Positions 50,524-59,134 of a stretch of 64,000 bases of DNA are shown piece by piece (position 1 is the stretch's first letter; the number at the start of each line of letters is the position of its first letter). The stretch comes from Streptomyces sp. AP-93 (lineage in GTDB: Bacteria; Actinomycetota; Actinomycetes; Streptomycetales; Streptomycetaceae). The translations under genes were made by a program, and so were the position numbers. Location: NCBI RefSeq assembly GCF_022808175.1, contig NZ_JALGBX010000017.1:124001-188000 (forward strand). Reading direction: 5' to 3'. The notes beneath the pieces are model-generated. The model did not search any database and was not told where the DNA came from. It saw only the letters and a list, made by a program, of their open reading frames with translations.

Positions 50524-51810
50524 GTGAGTGCGTACGAAGACCCGTACCTGATCATCTCCTCCGACTGCCACGCGGGGCTGCCCACCGAGCAGTACCGCCC
50601 CTACCTGGACAGCGCCTTCCACCCGCAGTTCGACGAGTTCCTCGGCGAACGCGACGCCCGCCGCGCCGAGGCAACCAAGCTCGGCGTGCGCAACGAGGCC
50701 TTCGCCGAGAAGTGGTTCCACGACCACGAGGAAGGCCTCAAGGGCGGCTGGGACGTCACCCAGCGGCTGAAGGAACTCGACGGCGACGGCGTGGCCGCCG
50801 AAGTCGTCTTCCCCGACGCCGACGCCGTGGACAGCCAGACCGCCGCCCCCTTCGGGGTGGGCCTCGGCCTCTCCGGCGACCAGGACCCCGAGCTCGGCAT
50901 GGCCGGCGCCCAGGCGCACAACCGGTGGCTCGCCGAGTTCGTCTCCGAGAACCCCGAGCGGCACTGCGGGGTCGCCCTGCTGCCCATCACCGGCGATCCG
51001 GACAAGGTCGTCGCCGAGATATACCGCGCCAAGGCGTCCGGGCTCGGCGCCCTGATGATCCCGGCCATGTGGGTGGACAAGGCCCCCTACCACGACCGCC
51101 GTTACGACCCGGTGTGGGCGGCGGCGGCCGAGACGCAGATGCCGATCGTCACCCACTCGGGGTCCTCGCCGCGCCACGAGTACGGGGACCACCTGGGCAT
51201 CTTCGTCTCCGAGGTCACCTGGTGGCCGGCCCGCCCGCTGTGGTTCCTGCTCTGGTCCGGGGTCTTCGAGCGGCACCCGGGGCTCAAGTTCGGCGTCGCC
51301 GAATCGGGCTGCTGGTGGCTGCCGAACCAGCTCTGGTTCATGGACCGGCTCTACCTCGGCGCGCACGGCGGCAAGAAGCTCTCGCCGTTCGAGGAGCTGA
51401 AGCGGCCGCCGAGCGAGTACCTGGACCGGCAGGTGTTCATCTGCGCCACCAACACCAAGCGGCGCGAGCTGGCCCAGCGCTACGAGATCGGCGTGGACAA
51501 CATCCTGTGGGGCTCGGACTTCCCGCACCCCGAGGGGACCTGGCCGAACACCCGGAACTGGCTGAAGAACACCTTCCACGACATCCCCGTCGCGGAGACC
51601 CGCCGGATGCTGGGCCTGACCGCGGCGGAGGTCTTCGGCTTCGACACCGAGAAGCTGGCGCCGATCGCCCGCCGCATCGGCCCCACCCCGGCCGAGCTCG
51701 GACAGGGCGAGGACCAGGCGGCCGTCGAAGCCTCCTGGGCGCGCTCGCGCGACGTGGGCCGGCACTGGCTCACCGACAACGACTTCCCGGTGCTGGGGGT
51801 GAACCCGTGA
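50524..51810 (+). CDS. Amidohydrolase-2 family protein, first copy
   Basis: A 428-aa TIM-barrel protein of the amidohydrolase-2 (ACMSD-like decarboxylase/hydrolase) group. The N-terminal metal motif is IISSDCHAGLPTE, that is D-x-H rather than H-x-H; later elements are AHNRWLAEFVSENPERH, MPIVTHSG, VAESGCWWLPNQLW and NILWGSDFPHPEGTWPNT with the final Asp. GTG 50524 follows GAGGAG. In the same operon as a paralogue with GTGA overlap. Confidence 0.85.
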   Translation: MSAYEDPYLIISSDCHAGLPTEQYRPYLDSAFHPQFDEFLGERDARRAEATKLGVRNEAFAEKWFHDHEEGLKGGWDVTQRLKELDGDGVAAEVVFPDADAVDSQTAAPFGVGLGLSGDQDPELGMAGAQAHNRWLAEFVSENPERHCGVALLPITGDPDKVVAEIYRAKASGLGALMIPAMWVDKAPYHDRRYDPVWAAAAETQMPIVTHSGSSPRHEYGDHLGIFVSEVTWWPARPLWFLLWSGVFERHPGLKFGVAESGCWWLPNQLWFMDRLYLGAHGGKKLSPFEELKRPPSEYLDRQVFICATNTKRRELAQRYEIGVDNILWGSDFPHPEGTWPNTRNWLKNTFHDIPVAETRRMLGLTAAEVFGFDTEKLAPIARRIGPTPAELGQGEDQAAVEASWARSRDVGRHWLTDNDFPVLGVNP

Positions 51811-53042
51811 CCGACGCGACGGACGCGACGGACCGCTACACGGTCATCTCGGCCGACTGCCACGCGGGCGCCGACCTGCTGGACTACAAGCCGTACCTGG
51901 AGAAGCGCCACCACGAGGAGTTCGACGCCTGGGCCGCGACCTACGTCAACCCGTACGAGGACCTCCTCGCGGACACGGCCGACCGCAACTGGAACTCGGC
52001 TCGGCGCCTGGCCGAGCTCGAAGCCGACGGGATCGTCGCGGAGGTGCTCTTCCCGAACACCATCCCGCCGTTCTTCCCCAAGGCCTCGCTGATGGCACAG
52101 CCCCCGACGGCGGCCGAGTACGAGATGCGCTGGGCCGGGCTCCAGGCCCACAACCGGTGGCTGGCGGACTTCTGCGCGGACGCGCCGGGCCGCCGGGCGG
52201 GCGTGGTCCAGATCCTCCTGAACGACGTGGACGCGGCAGTCGCGGAGATCCGCCGCACCCGCAACGCGGGCTTGACCGGCGGCATCCTGCTGCCCGGCGT
52301 CCCGCCCGGCTCCACCGTTCCCGAGCTCTACTCGCAGGTCTACGACCCGATCTGGGCCGTCTGCGACGAGCTGGACGTCCCGGTCAACCACCACGGCGGC
52401 TCCGCCTCCCCGCCGCTGGGCGACGAGCCGGCGGCGCGGGCCGTCTTCATGGTGGAGACCACCTGGTTCTCCCACCGGGCCCTGTGGCACCTCATCTTCG
52501 GCGGGGCCTTCCGCCGCAACCCCGGGCTGAAACTGGTCCTCACGGAGCAGGGCTCCGGCTGGATCCCGGGCGTCATCGAGATGCTGGACTACTACCACGG
52601 CCGCCTGGTCGCGGCCTCGGCCACCGCCGAGGCCAAGTTCGGGGCGGGGCTGGCGGAGTCCATGGGCAAGGGGCCGGGCGAGGTCTGGCGGGACAACTGC
52701 TTCGTGGGAGCGAGCTTCATGCGCCCCCACGAGGTCCCGCTGCGGGACCGGATCGGCCTCGACAAGATCATGTGGGGCAGCGACTACCCCCACGACGAGG
52801 GCACGACGCCCTACTCCCGCGAAGGCCTGCGCATCGCCTACGCGGGCCTGCCCCGCGAGGAGGTCGCCGCCATGGTCGGCGGCAACGCCGCCCGGGTGTA
52901 CGGCTTCGACCTCGCCCTCCTCGACGCGGTGGCCGCCAAGCACGGCCCCCTCGTCTCGGAGGTCGCGCAGCCCCTGACGGAGGTCCCGGCGGGAGCCACC
53001 AGCCCCGCCTTCGCCCGCGGGGGCTCGGTCCGGGTCTGGTGA
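51807..53042 (+). CDS. Amidohydrolase-2 family protein, second copy
   Basis: A 411-aa paralogue of the preceding protein: ISADCHAGADLLDYKPYLEK, AHNRWLADFCADAPGRR, VPVNHHGGSASPPLGD, VLTEQGSGWIPGVIEML and KIMWGSDYPHDEGTTPYS. The two share the DCHAG motif and the order of blocks and are clearly duplicates. GTG 51807 overlaps the stop of the first copy. They may form a heteromer or act in successive steps. Confidence 0.85.
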   Translation: MTDATDATDRYTVISADCHAGADLLDYKPYLEKRHHEEFDAWAATYVNPYEDLLADTADRNWNSARRLAELEADGIVAEVLFPNTIPPFFPKASLMAQPPTAAEYEMRWAGLQAHNRWLADFCADAPGRRAGVVQILLNDVDAAVAEIRRTRNAGLTGGILLPGVPPGSTVPELYSQVYDPIWAVCDELDVPVNHHGGSASPPLGDEPAARAVFMVETTWFSHRALWHLIFGGAFRRNPGLKLVLTEQGSGWIPGVIEMLDYYHGRLVAASATAEAKFGAGLAESMGKGPGEVWRDNCFVGASFMRPHEVPLRDRIGLDKIMWGSDYPHDEGTTPYSREGLRIAYAGLPREEVAAMVGGNAARVYGFDLALLDAVAAKHGPLVSEVAQPLTEVPAGATSPAFARGGSVRVW

Positions 53043-53156: not shown

Positions 53157-56100
53157 TCAGTCCCTGCGGACGAGCCGCTCCGGCGGGATCAGCTCCGCCC
53201 CGGTGACGTGCGTGCCCGGGCGCAGCTCGATCACCAGCTCCTCCAAGGGGGCGAGCGGCGACAGGTCCACGGTCCCCAGACATTCGCTCAGCACCAGCCG
53301 GCGCAGCGCCGGGACATCGCGCAGCGCCTCCAGGGTGCCCTCCAGCGCGCACCGGATCAGCACGAGCCGGCCGAGGCGTTCGTACGGCAGGAGCGCTCCG
53401 GCCGAGATGGGCGCCGCGTGCCGGATCTGCAGGGCGGTCAGCCCCCTGAGCGGCAGCGAGCGCACCAGCTGGCGGTACTGGCCGCTCCCGGCGACCGTCA
53501 GCCTCTCCACCAGCGGCCAGCGCTCGATCCCGTCGAGCGTCATCCGGCGGGCGCCCTGCCACAGGTGCAGCGCGGTCAGCGAGTCAGCGGCCGGGACGTC
53601 CCCGATCCGCCGCTGCTCCGGCTCGAAACCGATGACCAGCGAGCGCAGACCGGCCGCGCCCGCCAGCGGAGCGAGCGAGAGGTCGTCCCGCAGGTAGCCG
53701 AAGGCGAGGCTGTCCGCCCGGAGTTCGCCCACCACCTCGATCCCGGTGACCTGCGGGCAGTCCAGGACGCCCAGGTGGCGCAGCGAGGACTGCCCGGCCA
53801 GCGGGGACAGATCGGCCAGCCGCGGATTGCGGTGCAGGGTCAGGGACTCCAGGTCCCGCCGCCGCGCGATCTCCGGCGGGACCGGGCCGTCCCAGGTGAC
53901 GTGCAGCCGGCGGACGTGCCGGAGCCGGTCCAGGGCCCGTAACTGTCCGGGCGTCCGCACGTGCAGGTGGGCCGTGTTCATGGGGGCGTCCGCGAGCACC
54001 GTGTCCGCGTACACGTCCACGGGGAACCGCCCCCAGGCGTCGGAGAGTTCGCGGGCCGCCTCGTAGCGGTCGTCCGTCCGGAAGCCGGCGATCACCTGGA
54101 GCGCCCGGTCGCCGCCGACGAGCGCCGCCGTACGGATCGTCGCGGCCGCCTCGGCCTCGACGAGCCCGGCGGGCTCCGGCAGCAGCTCCAGCACCAGTTC
54201 CCCCGCCTTGGCCAGTTCCTCGGCCTGGCCGGGGGAGCGCGGGGGCAGCAGGAGCGCCGTCCGGGCCGTCACCTCGCGCCGGACCTCCGGATCCAGCTCC
54301 GGGGCGTGCTCCAGGCAGGCGGCCGCGAGCAGCACCAGCCGGCTGCGCTCGGGCTCCGACTGATCGGCTCGCGCCAGCAACTGCCGTAGCAGGTAGGAGC
54401 GTTCGTCGGGCCGGGCGTGCCCCACCGCCATCCGGACCACGTTGTCCCAGGTGTACTCGTGGGCGTTGCGCACCAGGACGCCGAAGTCCCGCGCCTCCAC
54501 CGCCGCCTTGGCGCCGAGGTAGTCCTGGAAGGTCTGGTGGACGAACAGGACCGAGCCCGGTACCGGCTCGCGGAGCAGCCCGCTGCGGATCAGCAGGTGC
54601 CGGAACACCGTCTGCGCGCTGCCCTGCGCCCTGACCTGGGGCATGGAGTCGAGCGATTCGGAGATCATCCCGATCGCCTCCTCGGCGGAGGCCTCCACCT
54701 GTCCGTTGCGGATCAGCCAGTACGCGAGGCGCTGGAGCAGCAGGGTCTGCTCGTCCCGGCTGAGGTAGACGCCCTCGACCCCGGAGATGTCCCGTTCGCT
54801 GTCGCGGCGGATCAGCAGCATGTCCAGAGCCGTGTCGTAGAGCTCCTTGCGGGCCCGCGGCAGATGCATCCTGCGGTCCCGGTTGAGTGCGCACAGCAGG
54901 GCGCACATGAGCGGGTTCGTCGCCAGCCTGCCCAGGTCCCGGCGCGATCCCACGGCCTCCAGGAGCGCCTTCTCGTACCGGTCGAGCAGTTTCCGCTCCT
55001 GCTCCCGCCCCGCGCCCTCGCCGTCCGCCTCCTCCCGGGCGGAGTCGTGCCAGTGCGTGATGAAGGCGCCGACGTCGTCGCGGTCCATCGGCAGCAGGGC
55101 GAGGGAGGTGAAACCGTGGGCGGTCAGCCAGTCCTCGGGTACGGCCGAGTGGCGGGTGGTGACCACGAAGCGGGCCGCCGGGTACTCGGTGAGCAGGGCC
55201 CGCAGCCAGGACCCGGTCCTGTCGCGCAGTCGCGGAGGCACCTCGTCCACTCCGTCGATCAGCACCAGCGCCCGTCCGGAGGCGAGGAGTCCGGTGATCC
55301 AGCCCTCGGGAGGCGGCAGCGGGACGCCGGTCGCGCCGAGCCAGTCCTGCGGCCGGGGCAGTCCGGCGGGGGAGTTGAAGGAGCGCAGCGGCAGGACGAA
55401 GGGGACGAGGCCGTTCCAGTCCGGCAGGTGGGGTCCGAAGCTGTTCCGGGCGGCATTGAGGGCCAGCCATTTCACGAGGGTGCTCTTGCCCGAGCCGGCC
55501 GGGCCGCGCAGCAGCACCCGCTCCGTCGCGTTCAGCGCCACCTCGGCCTTCACCGAGCTCTGCAGTCCCGGCTCTTCGAGGAACTCCCCGCCGCTGACCG
55601 CGAGGCTGATGTAGGCCCGGTCCAGCGACCAGTCCTGGCGGGCCTGGCTGAGCGTCAGGCCGAACAGCTGGACCCGCCCCTGGGCCTCGGCGACGTACTG
55701 GGCGTACCGCTCCTCGAAGGCCGCGGCGGCATCGAAGGCCGCGGCGGCCGCGGCGGCCTCCGTGTCCGGTGCGGCCCGGGGATCGGCGTACGGCTCCCCG
55801 ATGGCCGCGGCCTCCTGCGCGTCCGGTGCGGCCCGAAGGCCGTCGCCCTGGGGGGAGCCCCCGTCTCCCGCCGGCCGGCCGTCGAGGCACAGCACGAACA
55901 GTTCCCGGTAGGCGGCCTCCGCCTCGGGGCCCAGTTCCGCGGGCGGCGGGGGCACGGGGACGGGCTCCGGGCCGAAGGCGGCCATGAGGAGGACCCCCGT
56001 CTGCTTCGGGCCGAGCGCGGCGAACGCCCGGCCGACGGCGGACACCGCCGCGGAGCGGGCGGGTTCGTCCAGCCCCGCGCTCGCGTTCGTCAGCAGGGCG

Positions 56101-56252
56101 ACCAGCCTGTGCGCGCGGCGCAGCCGGTCGGTGGCGTCCTGCCTCACCGGCCTGAGCCTGAGCGCCCCCGGCGGCCGGGCCCTGACCAGCGCCCGCGCCG
56201 CGGCGTCCGCCGCCTCCAAGGCGATCTCTTCAAAACCCGGTTCGTACCCCAT
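53157..56252 (-). CDS. NACHT NTPase with C-terminal leucine-rich repeats (NLR-like STAND protein)
   Basis: A 1031-aa STAND-type ATPase. Residues about 1-215 form a helical N-terminal domain (FEEIALEAADAAARALVRAR, RRAHRLVALLTNASAGLDE) joined by an acidic Pro/Ala linker. The NACHT domain carries Walker A VLLRGPAGSGKSTLVKWLAL (about residue 250), Walker B ALVLIDGVDEVPPRL, sensor RFVVTTRHSAVPEDW and the winged-helix region RLATNPLMCALLCALN. The C-terminal 260 residues form leucine-rich repeats (LESLTLHRNPRLADLSPLA, LRHLGVLDCPQV, LGRLVLIRCALEG). This is the architecture of bacterial NLR-like proteins, several of which block phage infection. No dedicated effector domain is obvious at the N-terminus. 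ATG 56252 has GGGGAAGG 7 nt upstream. Confidence 0.9.
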   Translation of the reverse strand: MGYEPGFEEIALEAADAAARALVRARPPGALRLRPVRQDATDRLRRAHRLVALLTNASAGLDEPARSAAVSAVGRAFAALGPKQTGVLLMAAFGPEPVPVPPPPAELGPEAEAAYRELFVLCLDGRPAGDGGSPQGDGLRAAPDAQEAAAIGEPYADPRAAPDTEAAAAAAAFDAAAAFEERYAQYVAEAQGRVQLFGLTLSQARQDWSLDRAYISLAVSGGEFLEEPGLQSSVKAEVALNATERVLLRGPAGSGKSTLVKWLALNAARNSFGPHLPDWNGLVPFVLPLRSFNSPAGLPRPQDWLGATGVPLPPPEGWITGLLASGRALVLIDGVDEVPPRLRDRTGSWLRALLTEYPAARFVVTTRHSAVPEDWLTAHGFTSLALLPMDRDDVGAFITHWHDSAREEADGEGAGREQERKLLDRYEKALLEAVGSRRDLGRLATNPLMCALLCALNRDRRMHLPRARKELYDTALDMLLIRRDSERDISGVEGVYLSRDEQTLLLQRLAYWLIRNGQVEASAEEAIGMISESLDSMPQVRAQGSAQTVFRHLLIRSGLLREPVPGSVLFVHQTFQDYLGAKAAVEARDFGVLVRNAHEYTWDNVVRMAVGHARPDERSYLLRQLLARADQSEPERSRLVLLAAACLEHAPELDPEVRREVTARTALLLPPRSPGQAEELAKAGELVLELLPEPAGLVEAEAAATIRTAALVGGDRALQVIAGFRTDDRYEAARELSDAWGRFPVDVYADTVLADAPMNTAHLHVRTPGQLRALDRLRHVRRLHVTWDGPVPPEIARRRDLESLTLHRNPRLADLSPLAGQSSLRHLGVLDCPQVTGIEVVGELRADSLAFGYLRDDLSLAPLAGAAGLRSLVIGFEPEQRRIGDVPAADSLTALHLWQGARRMTLDGIERWPLVERLTVAGSGQYRQLVRSLPLRGLTALQIRHAAPISAGALLPYERLGRLVLIRCALEGTLEALRDVPALRRLVLSECLGTVDLSPLAPLEELVIELRPGTHVTGAELIPPERLVRRD

Positions 56253-56309
56253 CCCCACGCCTTCCCCCCAGTCCCGGACGCACTCACCCGGAAGCATCTC
56301 GTGAACCGT

Positions 56310-56340
56310 CGGTAACACCGATGGATACCGATCGGTAACA
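56310..56340. promoter_or_regulatory. Direct and inverted repeats in NACHT/hydroxylase divergent region
   Basis: CGGTAACA occurs twice (56310-56317 and 56333-56340, period 23 bp). ACCGAT occurs at 56317 and 56327 (10-bp period), and ACCGATCGGT (56327-56336) is a perfect 10-bp palindrome. The 129-bp region separates the minus-strand NACHT gene and the plus-strand hydroxylase gene, so one regulator could control both. Confidence 0.55.
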
Positions 56341-56381
56341 ACCCCTAGCCGAGCCCCCGAACCCGCCTCTATGGTGCGGAC

Positions 56382-57314
56382 ATGCCGAACCTGCCCGATG
56401 TCGTGCTGTGGTCCATACCCGCCTTCGTCCTGCTCACCGTCGTAGAGCTCGTGAGCTACCGCATCCATCCCGACGAGGACGCCGCCGGGTACGAGACCAA
56501 GGACGCCGTCACCAGCCTCGGCATGGGGATCGGCAGCCTCGGCTTCGACTTCCTCTGGAAGATCCCGATCCTCGCGATCTACACCGCGGTCTACGAGCTC
56601 ACCCCGCTCCGCGTCCCCGTCCTGTGGTGGACGATCCCGCTGATGCTGCTCGCCCAGGACTTCCTCTACTACTGGCAGCACCGCGGCCACCACGTCATCC
56701 GGATCCTGTGGGCCTGCCACGTCGTCCACCACAGCAGCCGCAAGTTCAACCTCACCACCGCCCTGCGCCAGCCCTGGACCAGCGCCACCTCCTGGCCGTT
56801 CTACCTCCCGATGATCGCGCTGGGCGTGCACCCGGCCGCCATCGCCTTCTGCTACTCGGTCAACCTCGTCTACCAGTTCTGGATCCACACCGAGCGCATC
56901 GACAAGCTGCCCCGGCCGGTCGAGTACGTCTTCAACTCCCCCTCCCACCACCGCGTCCACCACGCCTCCCAAGGCGGCTACCTGGACCGGAACTTCGGCG
57001 GCATCCTGATCGTCTGGGACCGGATGTTCGGCTCCTGGGCCGGGGAGACCGACAAGCCCGTCTTCGGCCTCACCAAGAACATCGAGACCTACAACCCGCT
57101 GCGCGTCGCCACCCACGAGTACGCCTCCATCGCCCGGGACGTGCGCGCGGCCACCACCTGGCGCGAGCGCGCCGGACGCGTGTTCCGCGGCCCCGGCTGG
57201 CAGCCCGCACAGGCATCGCAGGCATCGCAGCCCGCCCAGCCCGCCCAGCCCGCCCAGCCCGCCCAGCCCGCCCCGGCCGGGACGCCGTCGCCCGCCCCGG
57301 AGCACGCCGCGTGA
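56382..57314 (+). CDS. Fatty-acid-hydroxylase/sterol-desaturase superfamily membrane enzyme
   Basis: A 310-aa di-iron membrane enzyme with four to five helices and the histidine clusters of the superfamily: FLYYWQHRGHHVIRILW, VVHHSSRKFNLTTAL, and NSPSHHRVHHASQGGYLD, plus DRMFGSW. The set H-x2-HH / H-x2-HH fits sterol desaturases, alkylglycerol monooxygenase (AGMO, TMEM195) and relatives. Next gene is a YhhN lysoplasmalogenase, which makes an ether-lipid role attractive (inference). The C-terminal tail after residue 280 is a QPA-repeat with five 9-bp copies. ATG 56382; a GTGA overlap joins it to the next gene. Confidence 0.87.
   Translation: MPNLPDVVLWSIPAFVLLTVVELVSYRIHPDEDAAGYETKDAVTSLGMGIGSLGFDFLWKIPILAIYTAVYELTPLRVPVLWWTIPLMLLAQDFLYYWQHRGHHVIRILWACHVVHHSSRKFNLTTALRQPWTSATSWPFYLPMIALGVHPAAIAFCYSVNLVYQFWIHTERIDKLPRPVEYVFNSPSHHRVHHASQGGYLDRNFGGILIVWDRMFGSWAGETDKPVFGLTKNIETYNPLRVATHEYASIARDVRAATTWRERAGRVFRGPGWQPAQASQASQPAQPAQPAQPAQPAPAGTPSPAPEHAA
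57228..57272 (+). repeat. Five 9-bp repeats CAGCCCGCC in hydroxylase tail
   Basis: Five contiguous 9-bp copies of CAGCCCGCC (57228-57272) encode (Gln-Pro-Ala)x5 at the C-terminus of the hydroxylase, preceded by GCATCGCAG repeats giving QAS. This tail is a likely length-variable locus. Confidence 0.92.
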
Positions 57315-58072
57315 GCGCCACCGGATCCACCGAGCGCGCGGGGTCCCGTACACCGGCCTGGGTGCGCCCCGCCGTCCCCCCGGGCTCCGGCCCCGCCACC
57401 AGGGCGCTGCTCGTCGCCTTCGCCGTCGCCACCGCCGTGGACCTCGGGTCGCTGCTGGCGGGCTGGCACACCGGGCACCTCATCGCCAAGCCGCTGCTGA
57501 TGCCGCTGCTCGTCGCCTACGTCGTCACCCTGGGCGCCCCCCGGCTGCTGATCGCGGCCCTGCTGTTCGGCTGGGGCGGGGACCTGGCCCTGCTCTTCGA
57601 CGCCGATCCCGCCTTCCTGATCGGCATGGGCTCCTTCGCCGCCGGGCACGTCTGCTACCTCGTGCTTTTCGGCAGGCACAGCCTCTTCGGCAGGCACAGC
57701 CTCTTCGGCCGCCGCCGGACGGGCCCCCTGCTCGGGGCCGCGTACGCCGCCGCGCTGCTGTCCACCGTCACGCTGCTCTGGAGCGACCTGCCCGCGGAAC
57801 TGCGGATCCCGGTCGCCGGGTACAGCCTGCTGCTCACCGCCATGGCCTACCGCTCCAGCGTCCTGGGGCGGCGGGCCGGGCTCGGCGGGGCGCTGTTCCT
57901 GCTCTCCGACACGCTCATCGCCACCGGGGTCGCCGAGTGGCCCCAACTGCCCCGCCCGGACTTCTGGGTCATGGCCACCTACGTGGCGGCCCAGTACCTG
58001 CTGGCCACGGGAGCACTCGCGGCGCAGCGGGCGTACGGTAGGGAGGCCCTACAGGGCTCCACCACTTCCTAG
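57311..58072 (+). CDS. Lysoplasmalogenase (YhhN/TMEM86 family)
   Basis: A 253-aa integral membrane protein of the YhhN family with about eight helices, including HLIAKPLLMPLLVAYVV, LFGWGGDLALLFDADPAFLIG, AFAAGHVCYLVLF-type segment and GALFLLSDTLIATGVAEWP. Conserved Lys, Gly-Asp and Ser-Asp positions of the family are present (GWGGD, LLSDTLIA). TMEM86/YhhN enzymes hydrolyse the vinyl-ether bond of lysoplasmalogen to a fatty aldehyde. The start GTG 57311 overlaps the hydroxylase stop. An 18-bp tandem repeat in one loop duplicates HSLFGR. Confidence 0.88.
   Translation: MSATGSTERAGSRTPAWVRPAVPPGSGPATRALLVAFAVATAVDLGSLLAGWHTGHLIAKPLLMPLLVAYVVTLGAPRLLIAALLFGWGGDLALLFDADPAFLIGMGSFAAGHVCYLVLFGRHSLFGRHSLFGRRRTGPLLGAAYAAALLSTVTLLWSDLPAELRIPVAGYSLLLTAMAYRSSVLGRRAGLGGALFLLSDTLIATGVAEWPQLPRPDFWVMATYVAAQYLLATGALAAQRAYGREALQGSTTS
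57668..57703 (+). repeat. 18-bp tandem duplication in lysoplasmalogenase
   Basis: Two identical 18-bp copies (57668-57685 and 57686-57703) encode FGRHSL twice in an inter-helix loop. Being identical, the duplication is recent. Confidence 0.92.
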
Positions 58073-58090
58073 CCGGAGGACTGCACCACC

Positions 58091-59134
58091 ATGCGCGCCA
58101 CCGTCATCCACGCCCCGCACGACATCCGCGTGGAGGAGGTGCCCGACGCTGCGATCCAGCGCCCCGAGGACGCCGTCGTCCGCGTCCTGCGTGCCTGCAT
58201 CTGCGGCAGCGACCTCTGGGCCTACCGCGGCGAGGCCAAGCGCCAGCCGGGCCAGCGGATCGGCCACGAGTTCCTCGGCGTCGTCGAGGAGACCGGCTCC
58301 GCCGTCTCGGACCTGCGCGCCGGAGACCTCGTCGTCGCCCCCTTCATGTGGTCCGACGGCACCTGCGCCTACTGCTCCGAGGGCCTCTACACCTCCTGCG
58401 AGCACGGCGGCTTCTGGGGCTCGGTCGGCCACGACGGCGGCCAGGGCGAGGCCGTCCGGGTCCCGCACGCCGACGGCACGCTGGTGAAGCTGCCCTCCGA
58501 CGCCGCATCCGACGACCACCTGCTGACCGCGCTGCTCGCGCTGTCCGACGTCATGGGGACCGGCCATCACGCCGCGCTCGGTGCGGGGGTCCGCAAGGGC
58601 TCCACGGTCGCCGTCGTCGGCGACGGCGCGGTCGGCCTGTGCGGGGTCCTCGCGGCCAAGCGCCTGGGCGCCGACCGGATCATCGCACTGGGCCGGCACG
58701 CCGTCCGTACGGACATCGCCAAGCTCTTCGGGGCCACCGACGTGGTCGCCGAGCGCGGCGAGGCCGCCGAGGCGGCCGTGCGCGAGCTCACCGGCGGCCA
58801 GGGCGCCCACTCGGTCATCGAGGCGGTCGGCACCGAACAGTCCATGCGCACCGCCGTGAACATCGCCCGCGACGGCGGGGCCATCGGCTACGTCGGCGTC
58901 CCGCACGGCAGCGGCACCGGCCTCGACCTCGGGGTCATGTTCGACCGCAACCTCACCCTGCGCGGCGGGGTCGCGCCGGTCCGCGCGTACATCCCCGAGC
59001 TGCTCGCGGACGTGCTCAGCGGTGCGATCGACCCGTCGCCGGTCTTCGACCGGGGCGTCACCCTGGACGAGGTCCCGGCCGGCTACCGGGCGATGGACGA
59101 CCGCAGCGCGCTGAAGGTCATGATCACGCCCTGA
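58091..59134 (+). CDS. Zinc-dependent alcohol dehydrogenase-family protein
   Basis: A 347-aa medium-chain dehydrogenase. Catalytic zinc site: Cys in VLRACICGSDLW and Glu/His in RIGHEFLGVVEETG; structural-zinc-like cysteines CAYCSEGLYTSC; Rossmann motif VAVVGDGAVGLCGV. Substrate not predictable; aldehyde or alcohol is usual. ATG 58091 is 18 bp after the YhhN stop and is preceded by GGAGG, so it belongs to the same operon and could convert the aldehyde released upstream. Confidence 0.88.
   Translation: MRATVIHAPHDIRVEEVPDAAIQRPEDAVVRVLRACICGSDLWAYRGEAKRQPGQRIGHEFLGVVEETGSAVSDLRAGDLVVAPFMWSDGTCAYCSEGLYTSCEHGGFWGSVGHDGGQGEAVRVPHADGTLVKLPSDAASDDHLLTALLALSDVMGTGHHAALGAGVRKGSTVAVVGDGAVGLCGVLAAKRLGADRIIALGRHAVRTDIAKLFGATDVVAERGEAAEAAVRELTGGQGAHSVIEAVGTEQSMRTAVNIARDGGAIGYVGVPHGSGTGLDLGVMFDRNLTLRGGVAPVRAYIPELLADVLSGAIDPSPVFDRGVTLDEVPAGYRAMDDRSALKVMITP

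What the first reader, a model, noticed from the sequence alone, without database searches (positions are those of the whole stretch)
56382..59134. Predicted ether-lipid cleavage operon: AGMO-like hydroxylase, lysoplasmalogenase and alcohol dehydrogenase
Seen: three plus-strand genes with a GTGA overlap and an 18-bp gap. The first carries the di-iron histidine clusters of the fatty-acid-hydroxylase superfamily, which includes alkylglycerol monooxygenase; the second is YhhN/TMEM86, a lysoplasmalogenase. Both known activities release a fatty aldehyde from ether lipids, and the third gene is a zinc alcohol dehydrogenase that could remove it. Such a linked set would be a bacterial ether- or plasmalogen-degrading pathway. 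Plasmalogens are not a well known Streptomyces lipid, so the substrate may differ.
Basis: partly seen in the sequence, partly recalled or inferred. Interest (0 to 1): 0.78.

Follow-up and report, generated by a model that had tools for sequence, protein, structure and literature searches.

The report
Predicted bacterial ether-lipid cleavage gene pair
Two membrane enzymes, related to the two animal enzymes that cut ether-linked chains off lipids, are kept side by side in Streptomyces and some other actinobacteria, which suggests a bacterial ether-lipid breakdown pathway; the alcohol dehydrogenase next door is probably only a neighbour.

Summary
The three genes are as described: FA_hydroxylase (F), YhhN (Y), 4-bp overlap, then 18 bp to a zinc alcohol dehydrogenase (A). 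F and Y are a conserved unit. In 147 genomes of the order, 99 have both, 2 Y only, 11 F only, 35 neither; 79 of 101 YhhN lie directly downstream of F. The pair recurs in other families, there as regulator-F-Y, and on a Streptomyces plasmid between transposases. F keeps 14 of 15 residues published as essential in human AGMO, but neither the tetrahydrobiopterin glutamate (V instead) nor the C-terminal membrane part. Y keeps all eight TMEM86 residues. F has a conserved promoter and operator-like site; the only two other consensus sites in the genome precede an acyl-CoA ligase and an acyl-CoA thioesterase. A is not an obligate part: it follows Y in 39 of 101 genomes, occurs without the pair in 14, and has its own promoter-like element. 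Best reading: F and Y release fatty aldehydes from alkyl and vinyl ethers. The substrate is inferred, not shown.

The parts
56326..56339 (+). operator-like site TACCGATCGGTAAC upstream of F
   Evidence: loose form TAC[CT]N5GTAA[CA] at -65 to -35 in 81 of 85 distinct anchored upstream stretches, backwards control 0 of 85; consensus TACYKRTNGGTAAC has 3 sites in the own genome, control 0
56370..56375 (+). -10-like hexamer TATGGT, 6 nt before the ATG of F; fits a leaderless transcript
   Evidence: -10-like element in 83 of 85 distinct upstream stretches, control 0 of 85; its end lies 6 nt (73) or 7 nt (10) before ATG
56382..57314 (+). F: AGMO-like di-iron membrane hydroxylase, 310 aa
   Evidence: PF04116 E 2e-29; AGMO residue table; tree; model pLDDT 90; the two PDB entries listed in the second look are Scs7p hydroxylase, weak Z 5.6 and 5.5
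57311..58072 (+). Y: YhhN/TMEM86-family lysoplasmalogenase-like membrane protein (GTG start overlapping the stop of F; exact start uncertain)
   Evidence: PF07947 E 1e-33; all eight TMEM86 residues (list from PMC11994398); model pLDDT 90 with eight helices
58034..58039 (+). -10-like element TACGGT of A, inside the end of Y
   Evidence: element upstream of A in 34 of 38 distinct upstream stretches, including 6 of 6 A-only loci; backwards control 0 of 38; 3 loci without an anchor dropped
58091..59134 (+). A: zinc MDR alcohol dehydrogenase; site neighbour, not an obligate part of the unit
   Evidence: PF08240, PF00107; directly after Y in 39 of 101 YhhN genomes; at the same site without F-Y in 6 of 6 regions examined

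Best explanation
F and Y form a two-enzyme membrane module that removes ether-linked chains from lyso-ether lipids. F hydroxylates the carbon next to an alkyl-ether oxygen; the hemiacetal falls apart to a fatty aldehyde and a glycerol (phosphate) derivative, as in AGMO. Y hydrolyses the vinyl ether of lysoplasmalogens to a fatty aldehyde, as TMEM86 and mycobacterial YhhN do. The aldehyde is then oxidised, activated to acyl-CoA and degraded; the operator-like site shared with an acyl-CoA ligase and a thioesterase fits this. Since Streptomyces is not known to me to make plasmalogens, the substrates are most likely scavenged from other organisms. Shown: conserved pairing, residues, promoter-like and operator-like sites. 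Inferred: substrates, products, regulator, and an electron donor other than tetrahydrobiopterin.
For: F-Y co-occurrence 99/2/11/35 of 147 and 79 of 101 adjacent; outside the genus 57 genomes with both, 40 Y only, 62 F only, 178 neither of 337 (Fisher p not corrected for phylogeny). Adjacency in other families as regulator-F-Y, on plasmid NZ_CP020040 where the genes are annotated sterol desaturase family protein and lysoplasmalogenase, and with other flanks in L192, L206, L207. My gene calls give a 4-bp F-Y overlap in 29 of 38 named F-Y loci and in 32 of 53 distinct Y of the unnamed ones. F and Y trees split into matching types (quick trees). 14 of 15 AGMO-essential residues in F; 8 of 8 TMEM86 residues in Y. 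All three consensus operator sites of the genome precede lipid genes: this pair, an acyl-CoA ligase and an acyl-CoA thioesterase. A Streptomyces phospholipase A1 makes lysoplasmalogen from plasmalogen (PMC5095149, passage).
Against: The tetrahydrobiopterin glutamate E137 is V, Y236 is F, and the C-terminal membrane part of AGMO is missing. A characterised bacterial AGMO-like enzyme, PRUB680, cyclises prodigiosin (PMC6667630, PMC7911779, passages). No plasmalogen desaturase found, though without a positive control. Among the 57 class genomes outside the genus with both families, only 3 adjacent pairs were seen, by eye in a truncated list, and none outside the order in the phylum draw (by eye). 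Among 14 named loci with the regulator directly before F, only 4 have a called Y after F. Several linked regulator-type Y have Q where TMEM86A has H104.
Confidence: 0.5

Rival explanations
1. F and Y work together on another lipid: F hydroxylates a lipid chain (fatty acid, ornithine lipid or other membrane lipid) and Y, with changed specificity, hydrolyses the product; the unit is membrane remodelling, not ether cleavage.
For: The FAH superfamily is broad; E137 is V in F; many YhhN organisms lack plasmalogen synthesis according to PMC9052158 (passage); the shared operator-like site fits any fatty-acid chemistry.
Against: Q162, D233 and N235 of AGMO are kept, while six more distant FAH proteins lose Q162; all eight TMEM86 residues are kept; the OlsE model scores 35.8 against a cut-off of 475.
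Confidence: 0.25
2. Sequential cleavage: F desaturates an alkyl ether to a vinyl ether, which Y hydrolyses, so that the two enzymes together cut one alkyl-ether bond.
For: Would explain YhhN in organisms without plasmalogen synthesis. Only 2 of 101 YhhN genomes of the order lack F (G041, G065); the YhhN of G041 is of the other, unlinked type, that of G065 was not examined. Frequent translational overlap.
Against: The known AGMO reaction needs no second enzyme (PMC7911779, passage); F without YhhN exists in 11 genomes.
Confidence: 0.12
3. F is a C-H oxidase of a natural product, hopanoid or carotenoid, and Y is a neighbour.
For: PRUB680, an AGMO-like enzyme, cyclises prodigiosin (PMC6667630, passage).
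Against: Pairing with YhhN in several unrelated contexts; no biosynthetic cluster seen by eye around F in the loci read, whose neighbours were only partly annotated.
Confidence: 0.08
4. The linkage is only inherited synteny of a conserved Streptomyces region, without functional meaning.
For: Most pairs whose surroundings were read lie at one chromosomal site.
Against: Pairs in other contexts and families and on a plasmid; flanking genes and A come and go while F-Y stay together. But F also occurs alone at the site (L120, L124, L126, L128, L132, L133).
Confidence: 0.04
5. One reading: A is a dedicated aldehyde-removing partner of F and Y.
For: F-Y-A order in 39 of 101 YhhN genomes (in one, G090, F is on another contig) and 16 of 38 named F-Y loci; short Y-A gaps, median 30 bp in 40 loci, duplicates included.
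Against: A-only sites and own promoter-like element; A not seen beside the regulator-F-Y loci or the plasmid pair.
Confidence: 0.15

Closest known systems
Alkylglycerol monooxygenase (AGMO/TMEM195)
   Same: FAH di-iron motif; nine histidines, W243, D244, Q162, D233, N235 positions kept
   Different: V for the tetrahydrobiopterin glutamate E137, F for Y236; 310 aa without the C-terminal membrane helices of the 445-aa human enzyme
Lysoplasmalogenase, YhhN/TMEM86 family (TMEM86A/B, L. pneumophila YhhN, M. tuberculosis Rv1401)
   Same: Pfam family and all eight functionally tested residues; spacing matches from D82 to H104 and G182 to D190, one residue longer from D190 to Y213, shorter from K43 to D82
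   Different: encoded in a unit with an AGMO-like hydroxylase; 27% identical to L062, a YhhN of family f5 whose branch is separate in the tree. The named characterised sequences themselves were not compared
PRUB680 prodigiosin cyclase
   Same: bacterial AGMO-like enzyme (PMC6667630, PMC7911779, passages)
   Different: natural-product cyclisation; its sequence and neighbours were not compared here
Ornithine lipid hydroxylase OlsE (NF052566)
   Same: FAH superfamily
   Different: far below the model's cut-off, 35.8 of 475 bits

Membership tests
AGMO | eight-histidine FAH motif plus ninth histidine, W243, D244 | tested here: met
   all at matching positions; residue numbers from passages of PMC3617469 and PMC7911779
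AGMO | Q162, D233, N235, Y236 essential residues | tested here: inconclusive
   three of four kept, Y236 is F
AGMO | E137 for tetrahydrobiopterin | tested here: not met
   V105 in F
AGMO | nine membrane helices, four of them C-terminal, about 445 aa | tested here: not met
   310 aa, last helix 260-268 in the model
AGMO | cleaves alkylglycerols with release of a fatty aldehyde | not testable with these tools
   needs an enzyme assay
Lysoplasmalogenase (YhhN/TMEM86) | PF07947 match over the curated cut-off | tested here: met
   117 bits, cut-off 25.6
Lysoplasmalogenase (YhhN/TMEM86) | eight tested residues K, G, D, H, G, S, D, Y | tested here: met
   K60, G90, D91, H113, G192, S199, D200, Y224 (list from PMC11994398; matched by motif and spacing, not by alignment with TMEM86)
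Lysoplasmalogenase (YhhN/TMEM86) | eight transmembrane helices | tested here: met
   eight helices in a model of mean pLDDT 90; membrane insertion itself not predicted
Lysoplasmalogenase (YhhN/TMEM86) | hydrolyses lysoplasmenyl lipids | not testable with these tools
   needs an enzyme assay
OlsE ornithine lipid hydroxylase | NCBIfam NF052566 score over cut-off | tested here: not met
   35.8 of 475 bits
Sterol C-5 desaturase / carotenoid hydroxylase | clade membership | not tested
   no reference sequences of these families were at hand

The most novel reading that the evidence does not exclude
F makes the vinyl ether that Y then cuts: a two-enzyme route by which aerobic bacteria without plasmalogen synthesis break stable alkyl-ether bonds with a cofactor other than tetrahydrobiopterin, under control of a fatty-acid operator. 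This would explain why YhhN occurs in organisms without plasmalogens.
Probability: 0.12. Interest if true: 0.85.

Novelty: new variant of a known kind. Interest (0 to 1): 0.6.

Why it matters
[quoted passage not shown] A conserved bacterial pair of both kinds gives a concrete, testable ether-lipid breakdown pathway in aerobic soil bacteria, simple enzymes for structure work on a labile family, and a lead to a non-pterin cofactor. Two full-text searches (sterol desaturase with lysoplasmalogenase; YhhN with fatty acid hydroxylase) found no paper in the held library that holds both terms; the library has only open-licence papers, so this does not show that the pair is undescribed.

Tried and rejected
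Gene fusion: an open frame of 512 aa in L176 (Streptomyces sp. DHE7-1) carries both Pfam domains, but the DNA around the junction reads like a normal F end in another frame, so a frame change or sequencing error is likelier than a fusion (by eye); not used. PF10520 as a sign of plasmalogen synthesis: 0 of 147 and 0 of 14, but no control genome rang, so no conclusion. Solved structures by sequence: no meaningful match for F or Y. Foldseek on F: no match at E <= 0.001; the VIA-align second look listed only Scs7p, weak Z. The GPCR/rhodopsin matches of Y have best Z 10.2, which the tool says may be only a common helical arrangement. PADLOC on F and Y: none. Searches for Streptomyces ether lipids or for a fatty-acid regulator with this operator gave listings and abstract starts only, nothing I could use. 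F tree: 210 rows cut to 90 (length 200-450 aa, under 83% identity), quick method without the mixture model; long outgroup branches make the root unsure and support between the two Y-linked groups is moderate. Y tree: 140 rows cut to 49, same method. Fisher tests ignore phylogeny. One search used too narrow an anchor and is replaced. A strict palindrome pattern was first found in 17 of 206 F upstream rows, duplicates included; the looser form is the conserved one, where only F with an N-terminal LPD motif were kept (85 distinct stretches). In the named set F was not called in 3 of 80 loci (L215, L228, L248).
Full report
Observation. The three ORFs lie at the stated coordinates: 56382-57314, 57311-58072 (GTG start overlapping the TGA) and 58091-59134. 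Pfam gives FA_hydroxylase, YhhN and zinc MDR dehydrogenase. The genome search found one FA_hydroxylase and one YhhN match, these two genes.

The pair in the order. Among 147 genomes of the order, 101 have YhhN and 110 FA_hydroxylase: 99 both, 2 YhhN only, 11 hydroxylase only, 35 neither. In 79 of the 101, the hydroxylase lies directly upstream of YhhN on the same strand (266-552 bp between the domains); one of the 79 (G069) has a YhhN with a stop inside, and one of the other 22 (G090) has its hydroxylase near a contig end (locus list). The surroundings of 40 stretches were read. Most pairs sit at one chromosomal site, between exonuclease/SURF1/VIT1/amidohydrolase genes and CopD/CoA-transferase/S8 protease/acetate-permease genes (VIT1, CopD, CoA-transferase and exonuclease by Pfam, the rest named by eye). 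At this site some genomes have F alone, with another YhhN type elsewhere (for example L120 with L119, L124 with L123) or with no YhhN, and some have A alone (L113-L118).

The pair elsewhere. In a draw of 374 genomes of the class, three more adjacent pairs were seen outside the order (G552, G430, G702, read by eye from lists whose hydroxylase rows were truncated). These three and G007, of another family of the order, have a regulator, F and Y in a row; the regulator is GntR/FCD by Pfam in L135 and in Streptomyces seoulensis L175, the others by similarity. In a draw of 246 genomes of the phylum none was seen outside the order (by eye). Outside the genus, 57 of 337 class genomes have both families, 40 YhhN only, 62 hydroxylase only, 178 neither. 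A scan of named genomes with a regulator-type F alignment kept the best 80 of at least 591 loci: F was called in 77, Y follows F in 38, with a 4-bp overlap in 29 of these; A follows in 16 of 38; a regulator precedes F in 14, and in 4 of these Y follows. Gene starts are from my own simple gene caller. On plasmid NZ_CP020040 of Streptomyces sp. 3211 the pair, annotated as sterol desaturase family protein and lysoplasmalogenase, lies between transposase genes, without A in the stretch read. L192, L206 (Nonomuraea soli) and L207 (Kitasatospora phosalacinea) have the pair without any marker of the Streptomyces site in the stretch held.

Trees. F sequences linked to Y fall in two groups, the Streptomyces-site type and the regulator type, each with unlinked members; Y sequences split the same way (quick trees, moderate support, long outgroup branches in the F tree). 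So F and Y types tend to travel together.

F. Using residue numbers of human AGMO from passages of PMC3617469 and PMC7911779, F keeps the nine histidines, Q162, D233, N235, W243 and D244; Y236 is F; the tetrahydrobiopterin glutamate E137 is V. In 42 aligned actinobacterial proteins that position is E in 14, otherwise R, V, Q, T or K. Six more distant hydroxylases lose Q162 (L078, L088, L090, L161, L162, L163). F lacks the C-terminal helices of AGMO. It is therefore AGMO-like, not a proven AGMO. A known bacterial AGMO-like enzyme, PRUB680, cyclises prodigiosin (PMC6667630, passages), so the branch does not fix the substrate.

Y. All eight residues tested in human TMEM86A/B (PMC11994398, passages) have a counterpart in Y by motif and spacing. 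Several other actinobacterial YhhN, among them linked regulator-type ones (L149, L150, L151), have Q at the histidine. The model has eight helices and resembles GPCR and microbial rhodopsin folds at middling Z, as published for YhhN (PMC9052158, passages).

Promoters. Upstream of F in 85 distinct stretches, a TAC[CT]N5GTAA[CA] site lies between -65 and -35 in 81 (backwards control 0), and a -10-like hexamer ending 6 or 7 nt before the ATG in 83 (control 0). The stretches are from related bacteria, so they are not independent. This fits a leaderless, regulated transcript. The consensus TACYKRTNGGTAAC occurs three times in the whole genome (control 0): before F, 15 to 48 bp (depending on the start codon) before a fatty-acid-CoA ligase-like gene, and 11 bp before an acyl-CoA thioesterase gene. 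With even base use about two sites would be expected by chance (my estimate), so the argument rests on where they lie. I could not test their conservation in other genomes.

A. The dehydrogenase follows Y in 39 of 101 YhhN genomes; orthologues of 76% identity or more occur in 60 of 147 genomes, 19 of them without YhhN and 14 of these without F. In 6 of 6 A-only regions read, of the 14, it sits at the same site. A conserved -10-like element lies before A in 34 of 38 distinct upstream stretches, including all six A-only loci (control 0; three loci without anchor dropped). A is best seen as a resident of the site that may still use the aldehyde.

Mechanism. Shown: pairing, residues, promoter-like and operator-like sites. 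From known families: AGMO turns alkyl ethers into aldehyde via a hemiacetal (PMC7911779, passage); YhhN hydrolyses vinyl ethers of lysoplasmalogens (PMC9052158, PMC11994398, passages). Inferred: that F and Y do the same here on scavenged lyso-ether lipids, that the aldehyde enters fatty-acid breakdown, and that F uses a donor other than tetrahydrobiopterin. I put this at 0.5.

Noticed in passing
53157-56258 (-): A 1033-aa NACHT NTPase gene (Pfam) sits directly before F, divergent; relatives of it recur at this place in at least 8 of the 80 named loci (L196, L203, L204, L212, L222, L224, L226, L233) and in L109. PADLOC gives only a weak match, E 7.5e-4.
   Followed up: partly
50524-53042 (+): Two amidohydrolase-like genes (named by eye) with a 4-bp overlap recur at the same Streptomyces site.
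   Followed up: no
L119, L129, L130, L138: A second, unlinked YhhN type lies in another conserved Streptomyces neighbourhood beside a P450-like and, in three of the four, an enolase-like gene (these two names by eye from the sequence starts).
   Followed up: no
L033, L072, L073, L074, L078, L082, L092, L141, L144, L145, L146, L147, L149, L158: 14 of 42 aligned actinobacterial FAH proteins carry glutamate at the position of the AGMO tetrahydrobiopterin residue E137, although a 2013 review says no other FAH protein has it (PMC3617469, passage).
   Followed up: partly
about 57210-57311 (+): The C-terminal tail of F is a low-complexity Ala-Gln-Pro repeat.
   Followed up: no
L176:4001-5536: An open frame of 512 aa joins F and Y in Streptomyces sp. 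DHE7-1; probably a frame change, not a fusion.
   Followed up: yes
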